Below, one piece after another: positions 15,776 through 55,877 of a stretch of DNA of 64,000 bases. Positions within the stretch are counted from its first letter, which is position 1. Each line of letters starts with the position of its first letter. The translations under genes and the position numbers were made by a program. The DNA is from Gyrodactylus bullatarudis. Its lineage: Eukaryota; Platyhelminthes; Monogenea; Gyrodactylidea; Gyrodactylidae. Under the pieces are notes generated by a model that searched no databases, was not told the origin of the DNA, and was given only the letters and a program-made list of their open reading frames with translations. The DNA is taken from contig SSNU01000132.1 of NCBI GenBank assembly GCA_012064415.1, positions 238,236-302,235 on the forward strand, read 5' to 3'.

Positions 15776-15820
15776 TAATTATTCAAATTATCATTTACAA
15801 TCAAAGGAATTCATTAAAAT

Positions 15821-19130: not shown

Positions 19131-19167
19131 AATATCATTATACATCAGTAGTCATTAAAATTAAAGT

Positions 19168-19548
19168 ATGCGCAAGTTAGTATTGGAGCCGTGTAAAGGA
19201 AATAAATATACTTGTCCTCTGTCCGGACAAGAATCGTATTCTTCTTTCAACGAGTCCTTTGGTCTTGACGAGAATGATAGACTATATTTCAAATTTTGTT
19301 ACAAAAATTTCCCGAATGAAAAACTTGAATTAACTATCACAGATGACAAGCTAAAAGTAGAAGCAGAATTGGAAGTTGGAACAGAAAATTCAAAGTTTAG
19401 TCGTATCATTTCATTACCATCCAACTTGGAAACAAATCAACTCACAGCTGAGAGAACTGATGACGGAGTTTTAGTTTTGAGTGCCCCCGTCAAGGATCCA
19501 ATCATTCAACTGGAACTTGGGATGCATATTGATAAAAATAAAAAATAA
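19168..19548 (+). CDS. Small heat-shock protein paralogue, N-terminally shortened, gene 2
   Basis: Single-exon ORF of 126 aa and a clear tandem duplicate of gene 1: ESYSSFNESF, TITDDKLKVEAELEV and SLPSNLETNQLTAERTDDGV align without gaps. The protein begins at a Met matching internal residue ~45 of gene 1 (MRKLVLEP against MRKSMFSLEP), so about 44 N-terminal residues are missing. The alpha-crystallin domain (residues ~33-110) is complete, but the C-terminal I-x-I motif is gone. Both losses affect regions that control sHSP oligomerisation and client binding, so it may form only dimers or small oligomers (inference). The frame is intact, which argues against a dead gene, but its TATA box is degraded. 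Expression is uncertain. Confidence 0.82.
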   Translation: MRKLVLEPCKGNKYTCPLSGQESYSSFNESFGLDENDRLYFKFCYKNFPNEKLELTITDDKLKVEAELEVGTENSKFSRIISLPSNLETNQLTAERTDDGVLVLSAPVKDPIIQLELGMHIDKNKK

Positions 19549-27799: not shown

Positions 27800-30700
27800 T
27801 CAAATTTTACACGTGGAAATTCCCTGACATTCCATTTGGGTCTCTGATTGTGTCAAAATTATAATCCAGAATATCATCAATGTCAAAGGATAAATTATCG
27901 ATAATAAAATCCTAATTGTAATCAAGTAACAATTCGGTGAGATCATATTGAAAGCAGAAACACTTTTTAAACTATCGGAATTCTTTAGGAGCTTTGATCC
28001 TGAACCCAAATCGGATCCTTCATTTGAAAATTGTGGGAAATTTACATTATTGTTGTAAGTGCTATGAATACAATTACAGTGTGATGAAGGATTATGTTGA
28101 ACTCCTTGACTGCTTCCATTGATACCATTGCCTGATTCGCTGCTTCCAGACAAGAAATAATTCTCATTGTAATTCGAATCCTAGAATAAAAATTATTTAG
28201 ATCTAATAGGCTCTTACTTAATAAATATGAAACAGTTTAGTACCTTTATAGTTTCATGTATAAAGATTTGATGAGTCACAAAAGAATAATTCAACCATGA
28301 GATTCTTAAAGAAAATTAAAGTTTCATCTTAAAAACAGCCCAATTTCTATTTAATCTTTCGATGTGTTTCTTGAAGGTCTATTTAGAAATGCCATTTGTT
28401 ATATTCTCATCAGATCTCCTTATACAGATTTATAATTTATATAATTTATAATTTTAAATTGATAAAGCATCCTAAATTTTTATTTTTTGAAGGAATTTTA
28501 AAGAAAAAATTTAAAATCATTTGAAAGCACGTATCTAAACCTAATTGATATGATGATTTCGATGATTCGAAGCAGTTAATTACTGATATTCAGGATCAAG
28601 ATTAGACGAAGAATTCGAATTCGGCCATAGAGATAGCGATAGATTTCGGATAATTTCCCTTCGTTATAATCGAAACATTTAAATTCGATTTCTTAAAGTA
28701 ATTAGGAATTTCAGTAAACTTCTGCAGGTGAATTCGAATTCTTCGTCTAATCTTGATCCTAAATAATATTTAGTAAATATCAGTAATTAACTGCTTCGAA
28801 TCATCGAAATCGATGAAAATTTTGGGTTCAAAAGTTGAAAAAGTCCCAATTTTTTTGAATATCAACAACTTATTAGCTCGTTTAGTTTTAGAATTCAAAA
28901 ATTATTTTTTTTAGTGAATCCGGAGAAAAATATCGAGTTTTTTGTAAGAATTCTTATCTTCATGTCAATTAGCTATAAGATAAGGAGAAATTTTGCTTTT
29001 TACATAAAAAATCCTGTTTATAATAAGATTCTCATTCATTACATTCTGTTTAGAAGTTTAATTCAGATGTCTATTAAAAATTACCTCTAAAATTTTTTGA
29101 TATTCTTACCATTTTATTGGAAATGAGTCCATTTTGAAGAAGAGACAATGGCCCAGGACTGTTTCTACTCTCCATAATTCGACTACTCGGACTACCAAGA
29201 CCCATGGGTGAGACATGATTATAAGTGGAATTATAATTCAATCCATTATTCGCGCCACTTGTTGATCCAGAATTTGTATTTAGCCTTCCATTCATGGTAC
29301 TTGTACAAAGAATACAATCATTAGTATTTCCATTTTGAACTTGACCATTAACAGTACAGCCCGCAGAAGTGTACGCTGACTGAATCAATTTGCGATTATT
29401 TTGAGCAAATTTCTTCCTTAGAATTTTACTAGCCCGATAATACGCAATAACCGTGAGAAAAGTTATTAGAGTATTACAAATGATAGAGGAATAGAATGTG
29501 TAATTGTTCAAAAAGTTTGTCAATTGATACAAATTTGTTGAGGTACTCATTAATAGGAAGAAGAGAGTGTTTGTAAACAGAAGGGCTAATTGAATCAAGA
29601 ATGAGCACATTGTCCCTAAAGGGATGATCCAAAGGAGGAGAACGCAGAGTGATGATTGAACAATATTGACTAGTATAAAATAGAAAACCTTTGAACCGTT
29701 GGATAGGCACATGTTAATGACGAGTCCTTGTTGTGTACCTAATAAAAATGTTATTATAATTATAATGAATCTACTTTCAAGTAAATACAAAAACTGTTTA
29801 AACTATTAGAAACTACAAGAATTTATTTTTTCATAATCCCTATTAGTTTTGCACCGAATATTATAAACTCTTATCATCTTACGTAATAAGTTATTAGTAA
29901 TAACTTTTAAATAACCAAAAATTTTCCAACCAAGAGTATCATACTTTACTGTGTGTTAATGTCACTGTATAAAAGTTCAGGAAAGCAGGATTTTGATTGA
30001 TGTATTATGATGAGTAGTTGTGCTTGTTCAGTTTTTTTCGATATGGTCAGTGGTTGATAAATTTGAAATGCTAATCTCAGTTTCTTCATAATTCATTTAT
30101 TTTCAAGTTTGTACTTTAACGTGGTTTATTATTAATTTTCTTGTGAATTAACATGTTCACCAATTCGTCAAATGATAATAAATATTTCATTTTTATAAAA
30201 GTTCAAATGAAAAAATTTTATTTTGTGGATACCTTTCGCGTCTTTTAATTGTTGCATTAAAAATGAATAAATAATACATTCTGAAAATAACCGTGTGTGT
30301 ACATTTTAACATTCAAATTTATCTCAAAGTGTAAATGTAAATTCTTTACATGTTCTTATCCATTATTTTCAACAGATAAATCTTTATTTAGTATCAGAGG
30401 TTATTTTCAAAATCGAATGTAGTCGTTTATAAAACTCAGATCTTGATCAGCTAGCATTTTGCAATTTCGCAAAGCTATATAGAGTCGACTATGAATAAAT
30501 TTTAGGGTTTGAATGACGCTGCAGTTTTATCTCAGTTTTAAAACTGGCAGGTCGAGATCTAATTGTGCTAAAGGATAATTTTTCAAAATTGACTTACTGT
30601 ACTTTTTAATTGATTTGAAAAACTTTTTACTTGTCGACAAATGCACTAGATCAGTATCCTTAATTCGTTCATTGTAAAGACATTCATTGTTCTCCTTCCA

Positions 30701-33700
30701 TTTGAGTTCAGTGAGGAAAGCTTGATTTCCACCTAGGCAAAAATTATTCGAATTAAATATTAAACTCATCTAAAGGAATTATTATTGAATATAAGAATTA
30801 TATCAAGGATCAAATTTTGAAGAAAAATAAACCATAGATAATGACAGGAAGACTAAACAAATAATCGTAATCGCTAATACATGATGAATTGTTTAAATTT
30901 GGGTCTATCGTGTACAATTTTAGATAATATCTCTTTCACTAGAAAATAAAAATTGATGTCTATAGAGAAAGAGAGTACAATCTAAACTATACCTCTTGAC
31001 AGAAAACATGTTCTACAAACTATTGACTGAATTCACTTTCATTCAATGAAGCAAACTCATTATATATTAGAGATGTTACAAATTTTTCAACCTATTTTAA
31101 AAACCCACTCAAATGATAATACTATGAATTCTAAACATAATTTTATATAAGATTAAGTATCAAAATGCTTGTCTGTGATAATATTCAAGTTTAAAGATCA
31201 GACTTTTTTAAAAATGCCGCTAGATTTTCAATGAAATTTTTACTACGTTTTCATTAAAATTTCGAATATCTTTTTTGCTGGTGAAGCTTCAAGTGTATTT
31301 TCGATGAAAATAGTATTAGAATCATGTTAAGATCATTTCTGTTAAATTTTGTTATACCACTATGCCTACAAAAAAATTTAGGGAAAATGGGCAATGCACG
31401 ACTATGCATAGGATTGCAAACGAATTTTCAGTTATTTTAGATCAAAATTATATGCAGAAATTTCACGGAAAACTTGATTAATAAAAGGTAAAATTTCGTT
31501 TATATTATCCTCATGATAAGCTTAGATTCATCAAATACGAATGTGGTATATTCCCTATTTTGAAACCTCAGTCTAGAAATGAACTCGGTAGATAAATTAT
31601 AAGTCAAATTATGTTCAAATCTGGTCATTAAAGAGATTAAAGAAAAATTCCTCAATACCTTGCTAGTTGAAATCGAATACAAACACTTAGAAAACTGAAG
31701 ATCATCCGTTTGAATATACGTTTACAAAATACGTATTTTAAATCATTCAAGAGATGAAAACTCATCATTGAAGAGAGTTGTAAAGAAATCTCCTACAAAT
31801 ATAATTATATACTTATGAGCCACAAGAGGATTAAATAGATATATTCATTGATATTCCTTATTAAAGCATTTTTTATTGCTGTGGCTAGCCAAAAAAATTG
31901 CCCTCAATAAGTACTACCAATCATTATAAACTTTTGTATATTAATTCCCATTGTAAAATGTTTCTATTGGATAACAGGGCTATATGAGTAATCTATCAAT
32001 AATGCACTTCAAAGATTCCTTACTCAAGTGATTATTCAGATTATTCTTTCATCCAAGTATAAATTTATATGATAAAAAAATATCTAAAGCTAGTTAGTAT
32101 GAAGATGGTATATTCTCAATTTTTTCATCAAGAAATCGACTTTGATCAAGATTTTTTGGAATCTAGATCATGTTGCTCAGATTCAACCTGGGAAGAAAAG
32201 AATTTGAAAAAATCAATTTTGATTTGAAAAAATGTGCTGATTTCAAAGTGAAAATTTTTCAAAATTTTCTTTCTTCTTTTGTTAAATGTGGGCCTTATGA
32301 TCTAGATTCCAAAGAATCTTGATTAAAGTCGATTTCTTGATTTTATTCAAGAGTAAAAATCTTTATCAGCCTAAATTAAGTTGAAGTATTTAATGTTTCA
32401 AATATAAAATTAATTTTACCGCTAGTATATCTATCAAAAATTTCGTGGGCGATTGGGGAATGTTTCGTAGGAAAGAGTATATACTTAATCATGCATGTAT
32501 GCAAAAGGTGATAATTCAATGTGTATTATACGTAAAAGGGAAGATTACAAGATGAACGGAATCCATTCGTAGAACAACTCACCCAATTTTAGAATAAGCG
32601 GACAATTGACAAATCCAATTTGATCGACAAGACGAGATCCTCCGCACAAGACTTCAACGTTCAAGCTATAGGGGAAAACGTTAATTATTCATAGAATATT
32701 ATAAATAGAGAATAAATTTATATGTCAAAAACTTATGATAGATTAGTAGAGATATTTTCCAAGGAATTTGAAAAATTTGGAATCTTTCAGGAATAATGTT
32801 TTAATAAACCAGAGTTAGATTTCTAATGTCGTTAATATGATCACACTTTGCTAGTTAGGTTTAGTTAAACATAAAAATATTGTGAAAGTCTACTTTTCCA
32901 TATAACAAATCATCATATTTCAATGAAGTTTTCTCTAATTCCAAAAATAAGCTTAATATCGTACTTCATTGTATTGAGTAGCTAATTCAACCCTGAATTA
33001 AAGAATTTGAGCAATCACTTTTCTATCAAATGTTAATCAAACAATTTTTGTATGTAAACAAAATATTGAAATGAAAAATAAATAGCAAGTCAGAACAAGA
33101 AAAAATCCACATTCTTGACATCAGTAGAAAATGATGTATATGTCTCATTCTTGAGATTTTTTGATCAAAAGCAAGAGATTGCTCATTTTAATTTGATTTT
33201 TTCTTCGATATAAATTTTTGATAAATTTTTTTTCTAAAAACATCGATTTTTGAATTGGATCAAATCAGAGAAATGGAGGTCCGAAAAACAGATAAATAAG
33301 CCAATGAAAAGATTAATCATTCAGAAATTGTTGGATTTTCTCTTTTAAGGGAGTTTTATTTTAAACTCGCAGAAGATTTATAATTATAAATAATTTATAG
33401 ATTAAGAGTTAGATAAGGTATTCCTCAAGAATCTAGAATACGTCCCTTACTATTCAACATTATTTCTAAAGAGATATAATCATTTTACACAACATCGAAT
33501 GGATTGTAGAATTCTTCCCAAAGAAAAACTAGAAGACCTTGGCGTCACTCATTCACATAACCTTGACTTCACAGATTACTACATTATTACATGGAAATAA
33601 AAAGAAAATTCATTGCTCGACTCATTCATATCCACAAGTGCATAAAAACAGATGAAATGAAAAAACTTCTCTTCAAATTATATATAGAATATTGTATGAA

Positions 33701-36700
33701 ATTCAACATATATTTTCATCATAGTGGGAAATTGAACAATCTGAATTCTCCAATTTCCACGAAAAAGAATGACCCAAAATTTCTGTGATCTTCATAGACT
33801 CATTACTTTAACTTTGTTCACAAGTCTGGATTTAATCGCTTCAAATAACAGAAATCAATAAATTACTGAAATATTAAATCTAACTCTTAGGCTAAACAAT
33901 TTAAAGTAAAGATTTAAGCATGAATAAAATACTCAGCTCTTGTTCATTAACAAAGAGCCTTCAAAGCTCTTTATCATCTTTGGTTATTCGTTCAATAATT
34001 TTTGCAAAATAAAACCGTGAAAGTATTGATTTAATTGATCAATGATCCTTAATTATAATTACTACATGATACATGTATTTTCTTTTTTAGATATGTTTAC
34101 TTTCTAAGGAAACGTATCGTAAAACAATAATTCAACAGATCCATATAAAAGTTTCACATAATTATTTTCTATCCCTTAGGCGTTACCTAATGATAACAAT
34201 GCAAACTGTTTATTATTATTTGAGTTTGCATACATACTTGGTACATACATAAAGAAGTATGATCTTCAACAAGTGACTTGTTGCAGTTCTTAGTGTTTTT
34301 TCTCTCTACCAATAATAATAAACAGAATAAACTTTGAGAAACAGTCTTTCTCAGAGACATATAATAAAATAACTTGTATTCAATAAATGTATAAAAAAGA
34401 ATTTTGTGGAATAGAAGAAATCCTCACTTTGTATAGTTTATAACCACACATAGAGTGAAATACCCCTTTTTCATATAAAAGTTCATTTAAAGCTAAAAGT
34501 ATACATAAAGAAAAGAGAGATTGTAGCCAACAACTACGTCCACCTCCCTTGAATCTTTCTAGTTTCATCTTTGTCAACATTACTAACCAGAGAGTTGCAA
34601 TAACAATCAGAATACAAATGTGAAAAATACTTTTTTGATCTGAAAATAAAATTCATCTTCCTTATCAAATATATAGAGTATGTGGAAGCGTTTTTCCTCT
34701 CTCCCACTTCAAGCCCAAAATCAAGGGTTATAAGGTGAATTTTACAATAAAAGAATATTTTAAAATATTCATAAGAAAACCAGATTGATTACTTTATGAT
34801 ATGCAACTTCTACCATTGGGAAGCATGATTAAATGCGATCAGATATCGATTTAAAGCTTACTTCTGAGTAAATGAATAGTAGGGAATATCTTGAGCCAAT
34901 ATTTTCCGACGCCTATCATTAAAGGCTCCATTAGGTTGAACAGATGGAAGTGAATCAGCATTGAGATTGCTTTCACTGACAGCTGGCTCTAGTTCAAATT
35001 GAAGCTCAAGACGGCTTGGTGATAGTTCTTCGACTTTTCTGATATTGTCAAATGTCAGATCTGGGTACCAGGCTAGACTTTTATCGAGTAAAAGTGTTCC
35101 AAAGTCAATTTCAGAGTTGATAAGTTTTGATTCGGTCACAAGCCAAGTAGTATACAAGTTGAGATTTACTTCGGCGGTCTAAAAATATGATTAATTTAGC
35201 CCTTACAGAATATGTTGAAGATAAAATGAAGGTTCAAAGCATTGATAATTGGCAAACTTATCCTAAAGTAAAGCTACTTGATATGAAATTGGGAATCTAT
35301 GATTTTTACGAAAACATCGATTTTTTCAACAAAAATTCGAATTTGTAAAAGATTTTTGAAATCATACTTATGTTGCCCATTTTTACGATTTGAAGAAAAA
35401 AAATAAAATTTTCATGAAAAATATGGTCAATTTTCAAACTTGGATTCGGTGACAAAATCCCATCTTTTTCGAACTTTGAACTGAAGATTTTAATGATTTT
35501 AAAGTAGGAGGGTGGCTATAAGATGTTTATTAAGATCGGGATTAGACATGATATTAAATAATCTGAATCTGTTCTCATGCATATCCTTATCATCGTTTGG
35601 GAGCTGAATTTCGATTTTTTGATCATATTCAATGAAATTTCAATAAATCGAAATCCTTCGAAAATGGTGAATCTTTCGGAAATTCATCGGCAATATTCGG
35701 CAATTTGCCTAATTCTGATCTTAAAAATCATCTTATAGCCACTCTCCTACTTTAAAATCATTAAATTCTTCAGTTCAAAGTTCGAAAAAGATGGGATTTT
35801 GCCACCGAATCCAAGTTTGAAAATTGACCATATTTTTCATGAAAATTTTATTTTTTTTTCTTCAAATCGTAAAAAAATGGGCAACATAAGTATGATTTCA
35901 AAAATCTTTTACAAATTCGAATTTTTGTTGAAAAAATCATAGATTCCCAACTTTATGATAGTAAAACATGTTAAGTCAAGGGTCAAAAAATTTCTAATTG
36001 GTAATTTCTTGAAAGAATCAGCTCTCATTAACTAAAGCTATGAAAAAACAAAAACATTTACAAATGTGATAAAAAATTAACGAAAACGAGATGAGTCAAA
36101 CTCGAGATAACCCAGAAAAAAAGAGAAACATTCATGAAAATAACATTCGAATGATTCTTCAGTTCAAACGAAAATCGCAATTATCATTGAAATAAAAAAA
36201 AACTTTTAGAGCTTCCTTTACGCATTTTTATTACACTTTCTAACTGCAATACAGATTCTTAGAGGAGATGAACCCTGGCTAATACAAAAGATGCTCCATC
36301 ACACTTTATCTATTTGTCAGAGATGTATCTGGAAGGGATGGACGTAATCAAAACTTCTTGTGCAATGCCTTTACACAAGAAGGGAGGTATATTCTGAGTG
36401 TAAAAAGTAATAGAAACGTATGTATATTCTGTTAGCCTGGTTAGCCACAATGCATCATATAACGGAGATGAACAGAAATGGGTTGGGGAACTGCCTAAAG
36501 TAATGTCATCTTCAAGACAAGTGTCCTCATAACTCTTTTTCGATTGCGTACAATGAACAGAGGGCAAAAGAAAAAATAGAAGAAAACTCATAAAAAAATT
36601 TGCAACATAAGTTTTACAGGAATAATCAGAGGTAAGAAAGAATAATGTAAATTTTATTTGCATTACGCTAAGGAATAAACCCGTTTTTTCAAAAAATATT

Positions 36701-39700
36701 TTTCGTTATCTAAAGCTAGTTAATAATTAAGTTTCATGAAGCTTAACAATTTTTCGTTATCTTAGATACTATCTTTAGCAAAATTAGTTGGCTAGGTTTG
36801 AGCAATGAGATTTTAAAAGTTTGAAAACTTTTTAATCTCCAAAGGAACAGGTCACTTTATCTTACCATAATTCTATTTTAAAGAAACTAAAAATAGTTCA
36901 TTAACTCCTTTTCTGTAAGAAAAACTAATATTCTTTTGAAATAACTATGACTTTTTCAGCTACGATCATCAGTGACAATTTAACCTCCTCGTTACCAAAG
37001 TTCGTATACGACCTCCTTTTTAAATCTTGATTAAATTGTTGTTCTATAAACTTATGAATTAGATTTTTTAATACCTTTAATTTTAATAGTTTTACCTTCT
37101 TAATGGTGTATGATTTTCTCTCTCCCAAAATTAATTAGCGTCTTTTATCACAGGTTGAAGTTTTTACTTGGAAACTATTATTGCTGAGTGTAATTAGGAC
37201 TAATTATCTTCAATGAAAATTACCCAAGAAACGAGTTAACTTATGAGCATAATTATAATCTTGTAATAATTCATATTTCGAAGGAATCAACCATCTCTGA
37301 TTGGTTAGCTCGGAGTTATCTCTAATTATATTACAGGTCGTATACGACCTAATGGTAACCAGAAATATGGAGAGCGAGTTAAATGTACGTCACACAAGGA
37401 ACGGAAAAATTTACTCACTAGTGGTAATTCCTGATGCAAATCAATCAGAAGAAGAGCTAGAAGAAGAAGCAAATACTCACCAGGAGCAAATAATTGAATC
37501 CTCTAGTGACGATGAAATTGATTTAGTTCCGAATTCCGTTAGGTCGTTAGATATGAGAGATACAAGACAGCATCCCAAGATAGTTCTTGACTTCACAAGC
37601 CAGAAAGAGAAACAAATATCCCTGAAAAAACCTTTAGAATATTTCTATACTTATTTCAGCGATGATATGATATCATTGATGGTTTACCACTCAAATATAT
37701 ATGCAACTCAACAGAATCGGATTCTTCGGGCCAACATATCTGAGGCAAAAAAATATCTTGGAATCTTACTGCGAATGGGAATAATCAAACTTCCAAGATT
37801 TATGATGTATTGGAGCGATGAAACAAGAATCGAATCAGTTGCTCGAGTTATGCCAAGAAATCGCTTTTTTGAATGGCAAAGAAATATCCATTTTTGTGAT
37901 AACCATCAACCTGATCCAGATGACCGGTTTTTCAAAATTCGGGAATTCTCTAATATTTTTCATTCAAATTGTAGATCTGCTGCTTCACAAGGACAAACCC
38001 ATTCTGTAGATGAGCAAATCATACCTTTTAAAGGCAGATCAAGACTGAAACAATATCTGCCAGCTAAGCCAACAAAGTGGGGCATTAAAGTATTTTCTCG
38101 AAATGATATGGATGGTCTCATGCATGAGTTTATCATCTATGATGGAAAGTGTCCAATAGTAGAAGAATCGTGTGGAATGGTATCTGGAGATTTTGTTTTA
38201 AGTGTGTGTAAGCAAATTCCTAACAACTCTAATCATATTATCTGCTTCGACAACTATTTCAACAGTCCAAGCCTTCAAAAGGCATTGTTAAAACGAGGAA
38301 TTCATAGTTCGGGAACATTGAGATCTAATCGACTTAAAGCATTAGAAAAAAGTCTTCTTACAGAAAAGGAACTTAAATCGAAAGGTCGTGGCTCGTATGA
38401 CCTATTATATAGCCAAAGTGACAAAATATTTATTATGAGGTGGTTTGACAACAGAGCTGTTACCTTAACCTCAACTTTTGCTTCGAGTGAACCTATCTCC
38501 ATTGCCAAAAGATGGAATCGTAAAGAAAAAAAAATCGAGCAAGTACCAGTACCATATATTGTCTCAAATTATAACAAATCTATGGGCGCTGTCGATTTAT
38601 TTGACTCATACCAATCCCTTTACAGAATTGATCATAGATCAAAAAATTGGTATTTTGCTGTTTTCAAATGGATTCTTAATAGCTCAATCATAAACGCATG
38701 GCTTCTTTACAAAAGAGACATGATTAAATGTCAAAATGAAAAGCCAATGGATCTTTTAAGTTTTCAGTTAAGCGTAGCAGAATCCCTGATCAGAGAAACT
38801 TGTGAACCTACTCCGAAGAGACGAAGAATTAGTATACCTGAAGAATCCCCTGATGTTCGAAGAAAATGTTCTTTAGAAAATATTGAAGAAATTCTAAATC
38901 TCAGCACAGGCAAATCAGACCTGGAGATTCATAAACCAATAAGAGTTGTCAAGGACAAAGATCGACGAGCATGTTTTACTTGCAAGAAGAAAAGTTATTT
39001 CTTTTGTGAAACCTGCAAAATATTTTTATGTATAAGCTCAAGTAAAAATTGCTATTATACCTATCATAATAAATAAAAGATATTTGTCGCTAACAAGTAG
39101 TTAAGTAATTTTCTATAACCTTTGATTACCATAAGGTCGTATACGACCTGATCCAGATCGACACAAAGCACTAGTTTGACTAAAATTTCATCTACATAAA
39201 GTTTGTTCAACAGAACCTGATAAATAAGTTAGTGAAAAAATCAAATAAAAAGCTCAATTGGTTTTTTCCTGGTAACGAGCGGGTTAAATGTGAATCGTGC
39301 TAAAAACCATACAAAATTATCAAACTTATTACTCGTTATTCGAGACCTAAAATAGTAGAAGTAAGCTGTAAGAAACTCTCTGAAACTTCTCAGCTAGCTA
39401 TTTTAAAGGCTATTCTCGATTGAATCGCTCAATTTATTTGGGTAAAAGTAAATTTTCTAAATATCTGGATGAAGCTTTCAGAGATTTAACATACAATTTC
39501 AGTGTTAAAATTGCTGAAATTTATGAAGCTGTTTTCAAAATTTGGAAAAAAGTAGTAAAAATTGGCCAAAACGTCACACTTTGATAATTTCTGATTTTAG
39601 ATCAATTAGTTTACTAGTCTACTAGAAACGAATAATCAAATTTGAGGGATACTATCGAGCCTTTAAACTAAAACAGACAGCTGATAAGTGTTAAGACTGT

Positions 39701-42700
39701 CAACATTTTAAAGAGTTCAAAAATTATTTATCAATAAAATTTAAAACCTCTGTTGATAGCCCTTGAAAAATCTACTTGCAAGAGCTTATGAAATCATTTC
39801 TGATATCTCCTCAAAGGCAACTTTCCTCATGAACAATTTAAAGAGAATATTAAATGTAAAGTAGCATTAAAATTAAGGTTCAGAAATATTGTGTTAATGG
39901 TGCTAAGCAAGTGTTGGAAACGTTTACAGTATAGACTGCATGAATTATTTTTTAGAAATGTGTTAATTTTAATGCGTTAACAACTGATGGGAAAAGTTTC
40001 ATATGAGGGATATCATAAACAGACCTGTTATTCGTATAAAATGCATGATGAATTAGAGAGTAATTCAAAATTTATGATTTTGATAGATTGGATAAGATTT
40101 TCAATTCAATTCCAATTGATGAGAAGTTCTTAGATTTTAATTGCTAGTGGAGAATATTAAATGTCTAATAAATATGGATATTTCCATGTATCAGTTTACT
40201 TAGCCTTTTATTTCTGAACCTCTCGGGAGAAATTTTTCATATTATAACGACTATAGAATAACATTTGCCAGTTCTCGTTACATATTACGAGGGGAAATGA
40301 AATCAATTTTGGGAAATGGCAAAAATTGCATTTCAAAAATAATCCGATTCAAAAGTTGATTATAGAAGAATGTACAAAAAAATATTTAATTCAAAGATGA
40401 ACTTTATTCCTTGATCAAAAAGTTTTGTGAACGGATTAAGAGAGGAATAAACACACTGAAATAATTTTGATAATTTTGTAGAGGGAAACGTCCAGAAATT
40501 CAATGAACCAATAAAAGATGAATCATAGTTTTATCCCATTAACAAACCAAGCCAGTTCTCCTTGCCCTATAGATACATTTTTAGTATATAAAAATAATAA
40601 TGTAAACATTTATATTTATAAATGCAGGAAGAATAACTAAATTTCTAGGTTAGACTTTAGAAAGAATAGTATTTTAGAGTATTTTTAGAGTATTTTTCCC
40701 GATTGAATATTGAGATGGAATAAATTAATCTAAATTAACCCTTAAAGATCCAGAGAAATTTTTTTCAAGGTACATTGTAAATTAAAATAGGTTGATATGA
40801 AGTTGGGAATCTATGGTTTTTACGAAAAATTCACTAAAAAAAATTTTTTCACTAACTATACAAGAGCAAAAAAATTTCCCATTATCTGTTTATTTATATT
40901 ATTTTAATCATTTATGTGATAACTTTTCACGATAAAAATGTGAAAAGCCAAACAGGACCCCAAAAATTCTCAAGTATAATAAAGTTCACTTGTAAGTAGT
41001 GAGAATATTTCTGGTGTTGAATGCCTAAAAACAAAGCTCTGTTGAGTACTTTTGACCGTAACTCAAAATAAAAACGATTTAATTCCTGAAATCTATTTCT
41101 AGTTGAGATGGGACTCAAATGTTTTTTTTATTTCAATAAAATCTCGATCGATATTTGTTTTAGATGAATCAAGATACTGCAGGCTATAATGCGAATTCTG
41201 GACGTGTATTGAAATTATTATCTCACATTTTGGATTCATTTTATAACTTTATCTTGGAATATGTCTATTTTGATTTATACAAAAATTTGCATATTTTATT
41301 TTTTTCTAAAATGCCGAAAACATTTTGTTCCAATAGAAAAGAATTCTGTTACCTTTATTCATTTGATGGAAGCTCAAATAAATGAAAGATGACTTTGTGG
41401 CTCTCAATGATGGAAGTAAAAGATTTATTTGTGTAAAAATTTTTGAATAAAACTAGAATTATAAAAATTTCATTCCTTGGATTTCTCTGATCATCTTGAT
41501 CTGTCAGTTATTCAAATTTATCATTATAAACTATAAACAATATTTAGATGTATTTGTTTTTCTACCTTTTATCAGCAATAGATGTAGTAAATATTCTGTG
41601 TTAATATTATATTGTAAACTTTGTTTAGTAAAGAAATTAAGACATTAGTACAAGTTTGAGAAATTATTATTCATAAAAAGGTAAAGGTTAAGCTAAATAT
41701 ACTTTGCAAATATTTAGTTTAAAAAAAGTGAGAAGAATTTCGATAAAAACTCACTTGAATTCCGTTGATAATCCTGACATTGAAATCATTCACTTGAACA
41801 GACGTTCGAAGAATTGAACGAGCATCTAGAAAAATTATTTTTAATGAATAAATTAAACTTTTATCGATTTGAATAAATAAGCCTGAATTTTTGTTTGTTT
41901 ATTTATTATTTTTACTCTGAATACAAAGATGGGTTCTATGAACATCTCAACAGCAGGTGATCAAGATCATGAAGCCAGAATAAAATTATCCTTCCTGTTA
42001 TCATTGGACATTCACGATTAAAAGAACACTCTAAGGATAAGAACAAAAGTGATCGGATAACTTGATATCGTTTGAAGATATGACATAATTTAATGATTTG
42101 ATATCAGGCAATTCGAGATTTATTCAGTTGGCCTTCAAATCAATAGACAAAGGATATATTATGATGGAGCAAATTTTTATTAACGTCCGAAAATCCACAA
42201 AATTTATAGAACAATCAGAAGTTTATTAAATTCAAAATGAATTATATGTTAGAGTTTAATAATACTATAGGTTTTCTTCATTTCTCGGTATACAAAATAA
42301 TTTTCATTTATTTTTAAAAGATTTAGTGCCAAAGCTTTTCAAAAAAATGTCACTATTATTGAAGAAATCTATCGAGATTGTAACAAATTTATAGTCGTTT
42401 TTAAGCACGTTGATAAAGTCTTTTTTTTCTATCTAGAAATCTGTAATTTCAAAACTTAAAATTGAGTCGTCATAGTTAGATTGTTTAAGATCTTGAATTA
42501 TAGTGATTATGCAAGTCGTACAAAGTACAGAAAATTTCTATTGTAAATGTACATCCAACGGCTATAATATATTTTTTCCCTATCTGTTTTAATGGACCTA
42601 AGATCCTCTCAACTCAGGATTAGTTCGTTCCAATCTTAATTTTGAAATTTCTTTTTAATGTATTTTAAAAGATATTAAAATTGAAAAACTGAATTGCCTA

Positions 42701-45700
42701 TATGGGGCAAATAATGTTTAATGTATTAGACTATTCTCCACAATATGATGTAGTTGGCAAAAATTAATCTGTTTAAAATCAAATATGAACAGGTATGAAT
42801 CACTTGAATAAAAAGATTGACAGGTTCCAATCATAAATTAATGGATAATTATGATGGATTTAGGAAAACCCAGAGAATTTTTAAGTTTGCCTGTTGTATA
42901 TTTGAAGACTGGAAGAGAAATTTTTTGACCTTGTCACAGGGAAATACAAAATTTATGGACAAGAAACAGAAGCATTTCTCCCCCTGGTTAAAAAAGAAAA
43001 TGGGAGAAAACTAATTGCTGTTTTCATTATGGCTTTAATGAAAAAGAGATGATACCACCTTGATAAGTATAAATTCATCATCAAATTTTTTATCTTGTAA
43101 CTGTAATTTTTTCAGTTTTAATGATAATTTATTCTCCTTTTTTGGGTTTGTTTAAATAAAGTTTAGTTTTTAACAGGTTATACAGGGGAACACCCTATTT
43201 GAATAGAAATTTAAATTTATTTAAAACAGAGCCTAATTTGCATATTATTCCTAGGACAAAGGGTTATTCAACCCTCATTCTTATTGGATACCATTTAAAC
43301 TTGTATTCACAAAGGAATATTTTGAGGATTAAATCATTGAATTTCATTAAACGAAAAAGTCTAAAGTCAAGCTTAATTCACCCAATCAGTGGTTGTGTCC
43401 ATCAGCCTAAAGCCCATCAAATCTTTTCTTTTTCTGCACTTTTTATTCAATCTTTTGTTCACAATAATTTTGGATAGATAAATAGAGAATAATTTGATGT
43501 CTGAATTCAAGAGGGAAATATTTTTCCCATATCATTGAAATCCTAATTCACTAAAGAATAATTAATACACTGTGCTAGGCTCCTGTATTAATTAATAATC
43601 TCTGGGATGAAATAAAAGTTAGAGCATATGTTTAATTATTTATCTGCAAATGAAAAAAAACTTTTTAGGATCAATTTAAATAGAGATTTGTGAAATAAAA
43701 TCTCATAATCTAGGATTTATTTCTTTGTACCAATGTTCTCGATGAGTGCTTGAAAATAAGGTGAATAATATTTTGACTGTTTTATCGCTTACCAGAAAAC
43801 GAATTTTATCTCATTTTCTCCTACTGTCTAAGCATATAAGATTTCAAAAAAAGATCTAAATTCTATTATTTTCGATTTTCTAAATTTGCATTCACTAAGT
43901 AACATGACAAAATGTATCACTAATTGCTATTTGAGCATTCTTGTGAGTTTTAGGCTTTTACCAGATCTATGTTTTTTTAAGACTTTTTGAGTTATAAATA
44001 TTTTTGTAATTGCTATAAGGAGCAAAAAAAAGTATGTTCCAATTCAAATTATGGGACATAAAAAGGGTTGATGTAGGTCCTTTATCATCATAATTGAAGA
44101 AATAAATGACTTTAGAGTAACTCAAAAATCATTTTTCTTTACTCACCCATATTGTCACCCGGTGGCACTGATTTACTGTGCATATACGTGTATAATTGTT
44201 CCACATAACGTCGCATTTTTTCAACGCTAAAAATTAGAACAAATTAATATAAATAATAACATGAAAATTTTGATAAAAATTCAAACGTAAAGAATTTTAA
44301 ACATGGAATGATTAGTCTTATGGGCAGATCAAAATTAACTCATAAAATAACCAGCTGTATTTGTTCTCAAAGGATTGTTGGAATAGTTCTAATTTATTGT
44401 TTATTAATAATAAGCCTTCTTTTTTCCTCTTTTGGTGCGGGCTCTACAATTAACAATATTAAAAGTAGTCGCAAATATCTGCATTGCCCGTGAATTAAAT
44501 TTTTAAAAACTGTGTATATAGTTCTCGTAGACATAAAGATAAATTATTCTTTAGTGTTCTACCTCTCTAGGAATTGTATTCTCAATATAATTAATATAAT
44601 TGTAATGTTTTTCATTCTCTGGGAAAAAAATTCAATGACAGAAAATGTTGACCTTTCCCTAAAGTAGAATTGACATGTTTTCTTATGAGCTTTAAATTTT
44701 TCTACTGAATAAACATGGGAAATATTTTGTTTAAGTTCAATATATTCCAACCTCTTCCTCACATATTGATTTGCACACGAGTGACAGGCCCCCTGGCCTA
44801 TTAGTCAGAAGAATCAATTTTATTCATTGTCTTTAAACCTGCTCAAATAATGTTTCTACTGAAATTTTATTTTCCCCCAGATCTTAAATCCAAGATGGCT
44901 TAATTTTTTGTTTATTTAAAAATGGAAAAAATATCAAACACAACGTTAGTGTACACAAAAGTGGCCTTTGTTTCGTCTCATTTGGAAAATTGAGTCACTT
45001 TTATAGAGATAATGAAGTAAAATGATTCATTTTAGTCAAATATGGCCTAATGTTAATGATCAAATATTTGCACTATATTTCCTGACATTGTATCAGTATC
45101 AACCAAATTGAGAGTAGACCATTGTTTCAATGAGAAACCATAAGGATAATCTTCATCTTTGAGGACTACGTGAAACAATGGATAGATTTTCTCTTGAGCT
45201 GTGACTGAATTCTGTGAGATGAAGGTTATGCAAGTAGGAATTTATTTTTATTGCTTCTGTTCTAATTTTTTTTCACTTGATTTATACCCATCTTAGATAA
45301 TTAATGAAAAATATAACAGTTTACATTTGAATAGTTTAGAATGTATCAGAAAAGGATGTACTCTTAGGAAAAAAGGGGACATCCATTGTTCTAAATCATC
45401 CATTTCAAATACAACTAAGGTCAAATGTAAAGATTATTCTTCAATCATCAAGATTAATATTGTAAAAGATCTTTTAAACTAAAGAAATTATCTTGAAACA
45501 TAGATATATTCAACAGAATCCTCTTCTAAGAGCTAGACCTCATGACTTTAGTAATTTGAAAAAGTGCTTTTTAGTTTATTCGTTAGATCTATCTCAAAAG
45601 ACGGATAAAAAATAGGATTATTTCAATAGAAATATGGTAGGCAAGTAATAATATTTGTTAAATACACGTCTGGACAAGAATTTTGGTCATGATCTTGGCT

Positions 45701-51700: not shown

Positions 51701-54700
51701 AAGATTAAGACATTTTTAATGAAAATATTAATTGAGAAAGTTCAAAATTTCGGAAATTTCGTTCATTTAATTCAGTATTTTTCAATTTAGAAAATATAAC
51801 TACAGATCTGAAATCAGCACAAAATTTCGATCCAGAAAATGTTTGTATCAAGATCCTATTGCACATAGTGTCCTACTGTGTTATTAGGGCCAACTTTTAT
51901 CTGATTTTAAGCTTATATCATTCTGATTCTCTATCGATTGATCTGAAAATCTCAACTTTTTGAAATTTTTAGACAAAACTTTATACCAGGACCCTAATAG
52001 GCCTACTTCAAAGTACAATGACAAGTTATTTATTCATTAAAAAACTTTGAAAATACACAAATGAATGGAGGTGTAGTTTTACACTCCACAAATACGGTTC
52101 TCACCAGAAGCATTTTAAGAGTTGATTCAGCCAGGCATAGTGGAATAATTTCGAAATAGGTCAAAGAAAATTTTAACAAAATTACAGGTGGTTTCATTAG
52201 TTTTACGAAATTTCATGCAATTCTAATTAATAATTTATATTAAATATGACATTGAATACATTTAAATTCAACCTAAAATATAAAGTCAAACTAATTTTAA
52301 TTCGGTATGAGACGAAAAGGTTTAGTCTTGTATGCTTTTTCCATCGCAATTCTGAGATTGTATGTACAAGACAATAATTTTTATTATTATTATCTTTTAT
52401 TTATTTAAATAGGTAGTTTAAAAATTTTAAATAAAAATTAATAGACTTGGAAAAATTTTGATTATCTAAGCCTTGTCTAAAAAGTTGTATTTAATTTTTT
52501 AGATAGTTTCATCAGATTAAAAATTTGATTGATCTGAAGGCCATCTACCAAGAATTATCAATGCTCATTCAAGAACTAACTGGCAAGATAAAAGTACAAG
52601 TCTCATCCCTTTCAAAGGAGGAACGAATCAAAAATAATTTTGGATAATTCTGCTTGAGGATATTCCAAGAAAGCATTATATGGATTAAGTTGATTCTTAA
52701 AAAATAATTCTAAAATTTATTAGAATATTTCAAGGCCAAAACTTCAAGTACAAGATGAAAAAGAATTTCTCAAGGGTTTGTGAGAAAAAAAGTATTTTAG
52801 AAAATACAGTCAATTTTATTGAAAATTACGAAAAAAAGCACCATAAACTATTTTCATGCAAATTTTTCAACAAAAACCGTTCAGTAATGAGTCAAAATAA
52901 GGACACTGAATTTTTCATCGAATCTAATTTATGATTTCAATAAAAAAATTTTGAATTTTCCATCATGGCACATTCAATGAATTCCATTGAACATACAAGA
53001 TTTTATTAGTTTTATATTCCAAAAGAACTCTTTTGTTATTTTCAGACCAACGCACTCTTGCAACAAACAAAAAGAGACAAATTCCATCTAATATTATCGA
53101 CATGTTCTTCATTTTTTTCAAGAAAAAACCCGAAAGGAAAGAGACACCAGAAGAATATCATTTTTTTCTATCAAAATCATTTTAGCAATTTTTTCTTCTG
53201 TAGAAACGAATAAATCAAAATTATTTTTTTACGTTTTACTTTAAATGCTATGATGATTTATTGATAAGATTTTAGTAATGCAATAAAATACAAGTTTTCA
53301 CTAGATATAAAATGAATGACTCATGGAATACGATCAAAGAAAATGCAGGGAAGAAACTTTCCTTTCTCAAGTGTTTCTTTTGACAAAGACTGAATAACTT
53401 GGGAATAAGTGGGAAATCATGTAGACAATTAGAGACACGCCTTAGTGGCCTTTATGCGCGCCATCTTCCTCGAGTTGAAAAAACAATGACAAGTTTGTTA
53501 ATAGGTCTACCTCAGTGAGAGAGCCACCTCTTCTTTTGTCTACATTAAAAGTGTCTTTCTCTAAGAGAAATGTATTTGTCTGAATAACATGAATTTTTCT
53601 CTATGCGCTTAGTAAAAAATTAGTGCATTGAAACAGTCATTAAAAAAGAAGGCATCAGCATAAAATTGATCAAGAACAGAATAAAATCAACAAATATAAG
53701 AATTAGAAAATTTTCCAAGTATAAAAGTTGCCTCATACAACTCAATAAGGCTTTGTAGATTCCACAGGGTAAATTTTTAAAGACACAAATATTATTTCTC
53801 TAAACCTTCAACAAAAATAATTATGCTGATCCCGAAAAAAAAATTGAAAACTGTTCAAAAGTTAAATATTGTTGATTTAATACGATTCATTTTTTTCTAA
53901 ACTATGAGAGATATCGAGCAAGCAACTACAAAATTTGAAACTTAAAAAAATTCAATCTGACAAAAATTTTTCCATGTTTGAATTTCGAAAATTTCCCAAT
54001 ATCCCATTTTTTACAGTTGAGCTCTGAATTTTTATCGACTTCAAAGATTCAAGCAATTAAATACTGATATTTGGAATAAAAATTAACCGAAGAATTTACC
54101 ATAACATTTTCTTGGAAACGGCGAGTTTTTCAACCCCAAAAGCCGAATTTGAAATTTTCGTGCAATGTTGATCCGAAGGGTCAGTGCTGAATTGCTTCAA
54201 ATCTTCGAAATCAATAAAAAATTTTGAGCTCAAAGCTTGAAATTATAAAAATGGGCAAAATTTCGTCTGATTAAATATTTTTATTTCAACAACCTATTGG
54301 CTTTTGAAATAAGTTATTCCATAACGGGATTCAAAATATAATTGTGTTCGAAATAGTAAATTCTCATCTTCATGTCACTTCGCTTAACAAAGTTCCTATC
54401 TACTGAGGGATAAACAACGTATTTGAAGCATCGTTCAATTAAAGTTATAGTTTGAGAAAGCGAAGTTTTCTTCTAGAAGGACAATCGGATATGGTTTCAG
54501 TCATTTTTTTCCTATTTTTCATCTAACTCTATTAGTTACTCTAGTCATTTTGATTCTTATTCTTTGTGTTTAATATTTGATCTCATCAATCGAGGAGACT
54601 CATTTTTGGACAAATCCATACAAATTCAAATAAAGTATTCTAGTTTGAGTAAATGCTCAATTTAACCAAAAGAAAATCTATTCCAAATTATCCATAAACT

Positions 54701-55877
54701 GGAGGAAAGTTCTCATTTCTATATTTTCAAAAAAAGAATACAAATTCACCTGTACATTTATTTTTCATCGGGGATAATCTCGTTTTGATTCCCAGCAATA
54801 AATTTGTATATGTATTTGAAAAAAATAAACTAAAATGTTTAATTTATATGTATTGAAGAGATAGAATTTTTAAATGACTAAGTCATTCCACGTGTTTTTA
54901 GTTTCTGTACAGCGTAGACATTAGAAGAGGAGCAGTTTCAGTGTACATTCATCATTCAAGTTGAGTTTAAATTTTCCCTTTAACGACACTCTAATTATGC
55001 ATGCTAAAAATTACAAAAGGGAAAATCCAATGATGATGGCTATATTTTGTCTTGATATATTAAACCAGTGAGAAAATCTAATTTTGTGAAAAGAATGACC
55101 ACACACATACATTGTTTTTGGGAGAGTACGCACAGAGGAAATTATGTAACATTTGGTCAAATTTAAATTCTTCCTTAATCTTTATAAATTTAAATGGATA
55201 ATTTTTTAAGCTCACATATGAAAGAGATATGTCAAGTTGAAATAATAATTATGGTAAAACAATGATGATAATTCTGTTGCATCAACTCCCAAAAAAGAGA
55301 GAATTTAAATAATTTTGAGAAGAAATTTTTAAAAAGATCAAATTTTATACCTAGCTAGATGATAGTAATAAGAGGGAGTATTTTTTAATTAGGATATTTT
55401 CAAGATTTTCTGGTAAGCCCAATGAAATGAAGACAAAGTATTATATCTTTTAACAAATGACTGATAGATACTATATTTTCATATTAGTATCTGATATAAA
55501 TAAAATCGCACAAAAGGAATTAACATCTGAATTATTTAGGGTCCCCCGAAAAAAAGGATTGCTTCAAAATGTTTGCGAAAATGATAGAAAATCAAATTTC
55601 TTTCCAACAAAGACGAATAAGCCTTAGAATTGACTAGGATTATTTATAAAATTAAAAGGTACAAATTTGAAAATGGGAAAATATGTCATGTCAAAATGGC
55701 GCCAAGAAATACAAAATTTTACATGATTAAACATTTTTCGTCCAACTTTTCAGCAGAGAATTTATTTAACATGTAGACAAGGATTATTTTAAAAATTACA
55801 AAAACTCACTCGAAATGTTCACATCTGACAGGATCGAGTAGAAACAACAGAGACAGGAAAACTCCAATGTAATTCAT
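27800..55877 (-). CDS. Divergent Cys-loop (nicotinic-type) ligand-gated ion channel subunit
   Basis: Eight minus-strand coding exons: 55877-55810, 44226-44147, 41825-41755, 35178-34862, 32665-32583, 30732-30598, 29738-29110 and 28180-27800. Every junction is GT-AG and every phase agrees, giving 1764 nt (587 aa). Exon 1 encodes a signal peptide (MNYIGVFLSLLFLLDP). The ectodomain has an N-terminal helix ending in PP, a WLVT segment, a loop-A-like AWYPDLTFDN, and two Cys separated by exactly 13 residues. Exon 7 holds three membrane segments (FYFILVNIVQSSLCVLLLW; LALLFTNTLFFLLM; a third ending IAYYR) and a Ser/Asn-rich loop. Exon 8 holds a fourth (LLSIIYPLTLMIFWIII). The layout is that of pentameric Cys-loop receptors, closest to nicotinic subunits. 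The Cys-loop Pro and Asp, the TM1 Pro, and both GEK and PAR pore signatures are absent, so ligand and ion selectivity are unknown. Confidence 0.78.
28555..28811. repeat. Foldback element in intron 7 of the receptor gene
   Basis: The left arm 28555-28622 (GATTTCGATGATTCGAAGCAG...) is the near-exact reverse complement of 28730-28811, apart from a ~15-nt insertion in the right arm. The spacer is about 107 bp. Downstream sequence to about 28990 is shared with the element at 54.0-54.4 kb, so this is a dispersed family. Confidence 0.8.
32130..32338. repeat. Short inverted repeat in intron 5 of the receptor gene
   Basis: Left arm 32130-32171 (AAGAAATCGACTTTGATCAA...) and right arm 32297-32338 are reverse complements over 42 bp with few mismatches, around a 125-bp AT-rich spacer. 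No transposase. Confidence 0.75.
33405..33790 (+). pseudogene. Fragment of a LINE reverse transcriptase (family of the 13.9-15.5 kb copy)
   Basis: Conceptual translation with stops gives GIPQESRIRPLLFNI, matching GVPQGSRIGPLLFN of the larger copy. Then EDLGVTHSHNLDF matches RDLGIEYDYNLRF, and IHKCIKTDEMKKLLFKLYIEYC matches the segment before its AIEYC block. An internal deletion has removed the FADD region. The fragment lies in intron 4 of the receptor gene, opposite to that gene's direction. Confidence 0.75.
35281..35960. mobile_element. Large inverted-repeat (foldback/MITE-like) element in intron 3 of the receptor gene
   Basis: Left arm ~35281-35545 and right arm ~35707-35960 are reverse complements over about 250 bp. 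Both contain GGGAATCTATGATTTTT, GGTCAATTTTCAAACTTGGATTCGGTG (in part), and TTCGAACTTTGAACTGAAGA or its equivalent. The loop is about 160 bp. There is no ORF. A transcript across it would form a long hairpin. A diverged half-copy lies at about 1538-1886. Confidence 0.8.
37335..37350. promoter_or_regulatory. Palindromic subterminal repeat immediately before the transposase start codon
   Basis: AGGTCGTATACGACCT is a perfect 16-bp palindrome. It is followed by ATGGTAACC, which contains both the transposase ATG and the inverted GTTACCA word of the transposon termini. This placement would let the transposase bind near its own start and repress itself (inference). Confidence 0.6.
37352..39076 (+). 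CDS. piggyBac transposase
   Basis: Uninterrupted ORF of 574 aa from ATG 37352, the first ATG of the frame. An acidic N-terminal region (residues ~30-60) precedes the DDE_Tnp_1_7-type domain. Catalytic Asp candidates are D220 (SVDEQIIPFKGRS), D300 (ICFDNYFNSP) and D415 (MGAVDLFDSY), with piggyBac-like spacing. A basic stretch (TPKRRR) may be a nuclear localisation signal. The C-terminus has a cysteine-rich domain (CFTCKKK, CETCKIFLC, then further Cys/His) of the type that binds the terminal repeats. The enzyme excises and inserts DNA at TTAA. No stop or frameshift was seen, so the protein may be active. Length is within the family range (about 570-600 aa). Confidence 0.95.
   Translation: MVTRNMESELNVRHTRNGKIYSLVVIPDANQSEEELEEEANTHQEQIIESSSDDEIDLVPNSVRSLDMRDTRQHPKIVLDFTSQKEKQISLKKPLEYFYTYFSDDMISLMVYHSNIYATQQNRILRANISEAKKYLGILLRMGIIKLPRFMMYWSDETRIESVARVMPRNRFFEWQRNIHFCDNHQPDPDDRFFKIREFSNIFHSNCRSAASQGQTHSVDEQIIPFKGRSRLKQYLPAKPTKWGIKVFSRNDMDGLMHEFIIYDGKCPIVEESCGMVSGDFVLSVCKQIPNNSNHIICFDNYFNSPSLQKALLKRGIHSSGTLRSNRLKALEKSLLTEKELKSKGRGSYDLLYSQSDKIFIMRWFDNRAVTLTSTFASSEPISIAKRWNRKEKKIEQVPVPYIVSNYNKSMGAVDLFDSYQSLYRIDHRSKNWYFAVFKWILNSSIINAWLLYKRDMIKCQNEKPMDLLSFQLSVAESLIRETCEPTPKRRRISIPEESPDVRRKCSLENIEEILNLSTGKSDLEIHKPIRVVKDKDRRACFTCKKKSYFFCETCKIFLCISSSKNCYYTYHNK
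39134..39149. repeat. Right subterminal palindrome of the piggyBac element
   Basis: AGGTCGTATACGACCT again, preceded by GATTACCATA, which matches the GTTACCA-palindrome module found at the left end. It probably forms part of the transposase recognition region. Confidence 0.65.
40940..41100 (+). repeat. Dispersed repeat copy (paired with 47.43-47.56 kb)
   Basis: The series AGGACCCCAAAAAT, TAATAAAGTTCACTTG, AAGTAGTGAGA and TGGTGTT occurs in the same order at 47435-47560 with substitutions. Both copies are on the plus strand in introns of the receptor gene. The ORFs here on the minus strand are shadows of the repeat. Confidence 0.55.
47435..47560 (+). repeat. Dispersed repeat copy (paired with 40.94-41.10 kb)
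   Basis: AGGAACCCAAAAAGTCT, AAAGTTTACTTG and AAAGTAGTGAGA align in order with 40940-41100. Ends are not defined. Confidence 0.55.
49395..49545 (+). repeat. Dispersed repeat copy (paired with 8.33-8.48 kb)
   Basis: Contains GAGCTCTCTT, ACCTTGGTATTTCTGTTGGTC and AATAAGATGACC in the same order as the 8332-8482 copy. It is also on the plus strand. Confidence 0.45.
51616..52223. mobile_element. 608-bp MITE with ~50-bp terminal inverted repeats
   Basis: The left end (GACTTGGACGAAATTTCGTA, continuing to about 51666) is inverted at 52174-52223, sharing AAATTTCGTAAAACTAATG and CCTGTAATTTTGTTA. The outermost 16 bp match at 13 positions. The terminus is shared with the 18502-18932 element, so the two belong to one family or superfamily. 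It lies in intron 1 of the receptor gene and has no transposase. Confidence 0.75.
54013..54400. repeat. Dispersed foldback-type repeat, relative of the 28.5-kb element
   Basis: Left arm ~54013-54072 and right arm ~54181-54243 are imperfect inverted repeats around the motif AAGATTCAAGCAATTAAATA. The right flank (CAACAACCTATTGGCT, then ATTCTCATCTTCATGTCA) also matches 28.86-28.97 kb. Confidence 0.6.

What the first reader, a model, noticed from the sequence alone, without database searches (positions are those of the whole stretch)
27800..55877. Highly divergent Cys-loop receptor subunit hidden in eight small exons over 28 kb
Each exon alone looks like noise, but seven splice junctions agree in phase and the joined protein has a signal peptide, C-x13-C, WxPD, and four membrane segments in the right order. 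The family fit is layout-based, because the sequence has drifted far from nicotinic, GABA and glutamate-gated channels.
Basis: partly seen in the sequence, partly recalled or inferred. Interest (0 to 1): 0.85.

Follow-up and report, generated by a model that had tools for sequence, protein, structure and literature searches.

The report
Profile-invisible receptor-like gene in a flatworm
A real eight-exon flatworm gene encodes a membrane protein laid out like a Cys-loop ion-channel subunit, but its sequence has drifted so far that no search we ran recognises it, so the family assignment is likely yet unproven.

Summary
The gene model is well supported. Eight minus-strand exons (55877-27800) join to 587 aa plus stop, with GTRAG donors and TAG acceptors throughout. 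A motif-blind gene finder recovers all eight with identical boundaries (score 72.0; 12 resampled sequences 6.9-22.6), adding one 84-nt exon inside a piggyBac copy. The host is a 77.3-Mb flatworm-type genome.

The family is not established. The layout fits: likely signal peptide, ~245-aa ectodomain, WxPD, C-x13-C, M1-M3, long loop, M4. WxPD plus C-x13-C in pLGIC-like order and spacing arises in 2 of 200,000 ectodomain shuffles. But Pfam, PDB and protein-database searches give no pLGIC match. hhalign finds only the WxPD segment. Profile scores are not significantly above layout-preserving shuffles; pairwise alignments are at most weakly above. FPxD, the M1 proline and M2 charges are missing. Single-exon structure models were uninformative.

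Best reading (0.65): a single-copy, strongly diverged pLGIC-like subunit, perhaps accessory or non-conducting. It differs from the flatworm Cys-less clade, which lost the cysteines but kept FPxD.

The parts
55810..55877 (-). E1: start codon and likely signal peptide (MNYIGVFLSLLFLLDPVRCEHF)
   Evidence: the only ATG..GTRAG first-exon candidate of that phase found in 57000-44227 with the filters used; recovered by the gene finder
44147..44226 (-). E2: predicted N-terminal helix of the ectodomain (by eye)
   Evidence: 3 of 654 open intronic AG..GT segments of similar length score as high
41755..41825 (-). E3: predicted beta1 region (by eye)
   Evidence: 12 of 701 score as high
34862..35178 (-). 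E4: ectodomain with YTTW...WYPDLTFDN (WxPD); the distance WxPD to first Cys is 76 residues versus 44 in own GluCl L001
   Evidence: 0 of 10 score as high; hhalign's only match to the receptor profile is this motif
32583..32665 (-). E5: C-x13-C (CGGSRLVDQIGFVNC), no FPxD motif
   Evidence: 6 of 640 score as high
30598..30732 (-). E6: end of ectodomain (ELKWKEN ... KKYS)
   Evidence: 15 of 331 score as high
29110..29738 (-). E7: pre-M1, M1, M2, M3 and first part of the M3-M4 loop
   Evidence: no other open AG..GT segment of its length in the introns; AF2 of residues 253-374 gives three helices, pLDDT 71.3, pTM 0.40
27800..28180 (-). E8: rest of the loop, M4, short C-terminus, stop
   Evidence: codon score only 3.8
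36980..39287 (+). piggyBac-type transposon inside intron 3 (transposase ORF 37301-39076), not part of the gene
   Evidence: Pfam DDE_Tnp_1_7 E 6.3e-68; inverted repeats 36978-36997/39270-39289 that contain TTAA; protein 100% identical over its full length at C245 and C421

Best explanation
This is an intact, single-copy, protein-coding gene of a flatworm. It encodes a strongly diverged subunit with the layout of a pentameric ligand-gated ion channel: signal peptide, ectodomain with a disulfide-closed loop, M1-M3, long cytoplasmic loop, M4, short C-terminus. Shown: the gene model, the topology as hydropathy, C-x13-C, WxPD. Inferred: the fold, the disulfide, which side faces out, assembly into a pentamer. 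Because FPxD, the M1 proline, charged M2 rings and most binding-loop aromatics are missing, my best guess at mechanism (inference only) is that it cannot form a normal transmitter-gated homomeric pore. It would act as an accessory or modulatory subunit in a heteropentamer with one of the genome's ordinary GluCl- or nicotinic-type subunits, or as a poorly conducting channel for an unknown ligand. Formal membership of the family is not established.
For: Gene model recovered without motif knowledge; junctions canonical and in phase; positive codon score in seven of eight exons, E1 being 0.0. Topology. WxPD and C-x13-C both occur in 55 of 200,000 composition shuffles of the ectodomain, and in order with pLGIC-like spacing (limits set by me) in 2 of 200,000. 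From the second Cys to a pre-M1 anchor chosen by eye is 67 residues, against 68 in own GluCl L001. An ungapped 72-column match from M1 to the end of M3 to the own nicotinic-type receptor at C130:692028, reached uncorrected by 2 of 400 (windows of 8) and 1 of 400 (windows of 4) layout-preserving shuffles; an alignment to own GluCl L003 that pairs both Cys with both Cys. Mean z over 36 own-genome targets is reached by 3 of 400 and 13 of 400 shuffles. hhalign: the real protein scores 23.5, above 5 shuffles (14.0-18.8), its reverse (12.3) and an MFS protein (16.3).
Against: No Pfam family for the whole protein even at E 10; of four pieces only one gave anything, HlyD_D23 at 0.28. NCBIfam for M1-M3 gave only the bacterial transporter KpsM at 0.0096, 15.9 bits against a cut-off of 300. 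PDB: beta-2 adrenergic receptor chains at 0.37-0.73 and SRC-1 at 1.1, no pLGIC; nothing for the ectodomain. No homologue among 7992 scored candidates at E 1 or 2405 at E 10. hhalign probability 1.1%, 13 columns. HMMER, windows of 8, 2000 shuffles per profile: reached by 180 (fam), 537 (comb), 708 (lb), 766 (nm), 1546 (tm); the best case is comb against full shuffles, reached by 11. Glocal z 1.1-1.8 against windowed shuffles; by part 0.7-0.8 (ectodomain) and -0.5 to -0.7 (M1-M3). Corrected for 156 targets the best pairwise match is reached by 61 or 130 of 400 shuffles, and the mean over all 156 by 45 or 72 of 400. Foldseek found nothing for the M1-M3 model; the E4 model is unusable (pLDDT 37.0). 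Intron positions of one own nicotinic gene, C141, read by eye, do not coincide.
Confidence: 0.65

Rival explanations
1. An unrelated fast-evolving four-pass membrane protein with a secreted-type ectodomain. It resembles a pLGIC only in layout, and WxPD and C-x13-C are coincidence.
For: Homology searches are negative, hhalign gives 1.1%, and profile scores are mostly explained by layout alone. Hallmark residues are absent.
Against: The motif conjunction at the right order and spacing is rare (2 of 200,000). I recall no other family with signal peptide, ~245-aa ectodomain, three clustered helices, long loop, fourth helix and short tail (not searched). In-register alignments to own-genome receptors.
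Confidence: 0.25
2. The exon chain is partly wrong (E1 behind an 11.6-kb intron, or E8, belongs elsewhere, or exons are missed), or the gene is a recent pseudogene.
For: No transcript data here. E1 has no coding bias (0.0) and E8 little (3.8). The gene finder adds one exon.
Against: All eight exons are recovered jointly. E1 is the only first-exon candidate of its type in 12.8 kb. Frames are open and phases agree. The added exon lies antisense in a recent transposon copy.
Confidence: 0.1

Closest known systems
Pentameric ligand-gated ion channels (Cys-loop receptors; GluCl and nicotinic types of the same genome)
   Same: Likely signal peptide, ectodomain size, WxPD, C-x13-C, M1-M3 cluster, long M3-M4 loop, terminal M4; Cys2-to-pre-M1 distance 67 versus 68 in L001
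   Different: No significant profile similarity. FPxD is replaced (LVDQIGF). By the ungapped match, the places of the -1' Glu, 0' Lys and 20' Glu (numbering recalled) read C, S and T, and the M1 proline is absent. WxPD lies 32 residues further from the first Cys than in L001. Intron positions differ from the nicotinic gene at C141 (by eye)
Flatworm 'Cys-less' LGIC clade (PMC9874803; parts 1 and 2 of 3 read)
   Same: Flatworm, layout of an LGIC, atypical Cys-loop, no standard selectivity motif
   Different: That clade lacks the cysteines but keeps F/YPxD and a glutamate at M2 -2'; here the cysteines are kept and FPxD and the acidic residue are lost

Membership tests
pLGIC / Cys-loop receptor | Signal peptide, ~200-250-aa ectodomain, M1-M3 cluster, loop, M4 (layout) | tested here: met
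   hydropathy; signal peptide judged by eye; three helices in M1-M3, moderate confidence
pLGIC / Cys-loop receptor | Two cysteines 13 residues apart before M1 | tested here: met
   C186 and C200
pLGIC / Cys-loop receptor | WxPD in the ectodomain | tested here: met
   WYPD at 110-113
pLGIC / Cys-loop receptor | F/YPxD inside the Cys-loop | tested here: not met
   loop reads CGGSRLVDQIGFVNC
pLGIC / Cys-loop receptor | Match to Neur_chan_LBD or Neur_chan_memb profile | tested here: not met
   contig C99 is also absent from the lists, which score only the best candidates
pLGIC / Cys-loop receptor | Cation (GEK-like) or anion (PAR/PAK-like) motif before M2 | tested here: not met
   PLGTMCSF at that place in the in-register match
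pLGIC / Cys-loop receptor | Beta-sandwich plus four-helix fold | tested here: inconclusive
   single-exon models only: pTM 0.40; 0 matches; pLDDT 37.0
pLGIC / Cys-loop receptor | Pentameric, ligand-gated conduction | not testable with these tools
   needs expression and recording
Flatworm Cys-less LGIC clade | No cysteines at the Cys-loop, F/YPxD kept | tested here: not met
   cysteines present, FPxD absent; definition from PMC9874803

The most novel reading that the evidence does not exclude
An orphan flatworm lineage of pLGIC-like subunits, invisible to profile searches, that has shed the Cys-loop FPxD, pore charges and most agonist-binding aromatics and keeps only the disulfide, WxPD and topology. 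It would work as a non-conducting accessory or dominant-negative subunit, and would mean that profile-based channel inventories of parasitic flatworms are incomplete.
Probability: 0.25. Interest if true: 0.65.

Novelty: new variant of a known kind. Interest (0 to 1): 0.42.

Why it matters
pLGICs are drug targets in parasitic worms, and a recent schistosome inventory was made by profile search (PMC9874803). If this gene is a real subunit, such inventories can miss members that only layout and gene structure reveal, and a subunit with no detectable homologue could be a parasite-specific target. If it is not, it is still an intact orphan receptor-like gene.

Tried and rejected
Homologues: two searches of ~5.8 billion proteins found none; they need shared 5-residue words, so a very distant relative could be missed. 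In the own genome only the gene itself was found; the weak second hit at C470 (E 0.158) lies antisense to a RING-finger-like ORF, judged by eye, and is treated as chance. Profile tests with own-genome and listed receptors did not separate the protein significantly from layout-preserving shuffles; pairwise tests did so weakly for own-genome targets only. Conserved intron positions: one nicotinic gene (C141) read by eye, no coincidence. Structure: M1-M3 alone and E4 alone, Foldseek and VIA-align on the M1-M3 model, nothing. An alignment of M1-M3 with 15 listed receptors was visibly misplaced, so I did not fold it. Ionotropic glutamate receptor was considered and rejected by eye: the M3-M4 stretch is low-complexity, not a second ligand lobe. 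Rfam: no match in the window. Papers: search listings; PMC9874803 parts 1 and 2 of 3 read; PMC12677651 passages only. None of the titles listed there describes this gene, but the searches were few and cover open-licence papers only.

Full report
OBSERVATION. The eight exons on the minus strand, 55877 down to 27800, join to 1764 nt coding for 587 aa plus a stop; the donors are GTGAGT (four), GTAAGC, GTAAGT and GTAAGA, and all seven acceptors are TAG. Junction phases are 2,1,0,2,1,1,0. To test whether the exons had been chosen for their motifs, I wrote a dynamic-programming gene finder that uses only codon usage from 11 other ORF pieces and generic splice matrices set by hand, run at one setting. 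On 27000-56500 minus it returns exactly these eight exons with identical boundaries, plus one 84-nt exon (37502-37419). That extra exon lies antisense inside a piggyBac transposase ORF and I regard it as spurious. The chain scores 72.0; the plus strand gives 23.0 (mostly the transposase), the reversed sequence 12.3, and 12 Markov resamples 6.9 to 22.6. Exon by exon, few open AG..GT segments of similar length in the introns reach the same codon score (E2 3 of 654, E3 12 of 701, E4 0 of 10, E5 6 of 640, E6 15 of 331; none of E7's length exists). E1 itself scores 0.0 and E8 only 3.8. E1 is the only ATG-to-GTRAG first exon of that phase in 57000-44227 under the filters used. No transcript data were available.

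HOST. The window is contig C99:238236-302235 of a 77.3-Mb, 471-contig genome. A GluCl-type gene of that genome (L003) finds flatworms first: every organism named in the first 85 of the 120 rows shown (355 hits in all) is a parasitic flatworm, rows without a name aside, and the highest identity at 90% coverage or more is 49% to Cichlidogyrus, a monogenean. Published Gyrodactylus genomes are 67-91 Mb with 31-39% GC (passage of PMC12677651); the window is 27-32% GC in 4-kb steps. The species is not established.

LAYOUT. Hydropathy marks M1/M2 at 267-318, M3 at about 331-351 and M4 at 540-574. Cysteines are at 186 and 200 and WYPD starts at 110. The start looks like a signal peptide by eye. In 200,000 composition shuffles of the ectodomain, C-x13-C occurs in 4.5%, WxPD in 0.6%, both in 0.0275%, and both in order with pLGIC-like spacing in 2. 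The spacing limits were mine, and the two motifs were chosen because of the family, so this is support, not proof.

HOMOLOGY. The direct searches are negative. Pfam finds no family for the whole protein at E up to 10, and for four pieces only HlyD_D23 at 0.28 in one of them. NCBIfam for M1-M3 gives only the bacterial KpsM at 0.0096, far under its cut-off. PDB phmmer gives beta-2 adrenergic receptor chains at 0.37-0.73 and SRC-1 at 1.1, no pLGIC, and nothing for the ectodomain. Protein searches scored 7992 candidates with none at E 1 and 2405 with none at E 10. The own genome shows no paralogue, and contig C99 is not among the 70 LBD and 74 membrane-domain matches. hhalign against a profile of 123 receptors aligns 13 columns, the WxPD motif, at probability 1.1%; its score of 23.5 is nevertheless above 5 shuffles (14.0-18.8), the reversed protein (12.3) and an MFS protein (16.3). 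HMMER: against shuffles in windows of 8 the score is reached by 180, 537, 708, 766 and 1546 of 2000 for the five profiles; the most favourable case, the combined profile against full shuffles, is reached by 11 of 2000. Glocal alignment gives z 1.1-1.8 against windowed shuffles and 2.6-3.2 against full shuffles, 500 each; part by part it gives 0.7-0.8 for the ectodomain and -0.5 to -0.7 for M1-M3 against windowed shuffles.

The mildly positive result is pairwise. Among 156 receptor sequences the best matches include an ungapped 72-column alignment, in register from M1 to the end of M3, to the nicotinic-type receptor at C130:692028. An alignment to L003 pairs C186 and C200 with that receptor's Cys pair; the top match, P0102, is in register at WxPD but not at the Cys-loop. 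With 400 shuffles the single best match is not significant after correction for the 156 targets (61 of 400 with windows of 8, 130 of 400 with windows of 4), nor is the mean over all 156 (45 and 72 of 400); the mean over the 36 own-genome targets is reached by 3 and 13 of 400.

STRUCTURE. AF2 without alignment of residues 253-374 (one contiguous exon piece) predicts three helices with very short connections, pLDDT 71.3, pTM 0.40. Foldseek finds nothing in PDB, so VIA-align had nothing to compare. E4 alone gives pLDDT 37.0. Both are uninformative.

WHAT IT MOST LIKELY IS. I put 0.65 on a strongly diverged pLGIC-like subunit, 0.25 on an unrelated membrane protein with a similar layout, and 0.1 on a partly wrong model or pseudogene. 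If it is a pLGIC, what is missing matters. The Cys-loop lacks FPxD. By the in-register match the places of the -1' Glu, 0' Lys and 20' Glu (numbering recalled) read C, S and T, and the pore face would be hydrophobic. The M1 proline is absent, and the loop-B region (GGNQAF) has few aromatics. From general knowledge of the family (recalled) this does not suit an ordinary transmitter-gated homomer. An accessory or non-conducting role in a heteromer is my inference; nothing here tests it.

COMPARISON. The known atypical flatworm channels, the Cys-less clade of schistosomes (PMC9874803, parts 1 and 2 of 3 read), show the opposite pattern: cysteines lost, F/YPxD and a glutamate at M2 -2' kept. This gene keeps the cysteines and loses the rest, so it is not a member of that clade by its definition. 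Membership of the pLGIC family itself fails tested criteria (profile, FPxD, M2 motif), so I describe it as pLGIC-like and do not file it as a member.

CONTEXT. The introns, about 26 kb, are partly transposon. Intron 3 holds a piggyBac element with TTAA in its inverted repeats (36978-36997/39270-39289) whose transposase protein is 100% identical over its full length to copies at C245 and C421, which points to recent movement. Beside E4 sits a 674-bp foldback element with many relatives in the genome.

Noticed in passing
36980-39287 (ORF 37301-39076, +): piggyBac-type transposase ORF inside intron 3; protein 100% identical over its full length at C245 and C421, 99-100% at C409, C28 and C330 (C409 and C330 with a stop), and many diverged relatives: a recently mobile family.
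   Followed up: partly
35283-35956: 674-bp foldback element next to exon 4 (main arms 84-100% complementary); of 2340 candidate places 40 were scored, the near-full-length ones elsewhere at 73-79% identity.
   Followed up: partly
15818-16381 and 19165-19548 (+): Two related small-heat-shock-protein-like ORFs in tandem, the second shorter (by eye).
   Followed up: no
13970-15379 (-): Two reverse-transcriptase-like ORFs of a LINE-type element (by eye).
   Followed up: no
G000 contigs C234, C448, C352, C285: Several anion-channel-type receptor genes lie in single open frames of 394-514 aa, some as opposed pairs a few kb apart (C234, C448, C352), unlike the eight-exon gene here.
   Followed up: no
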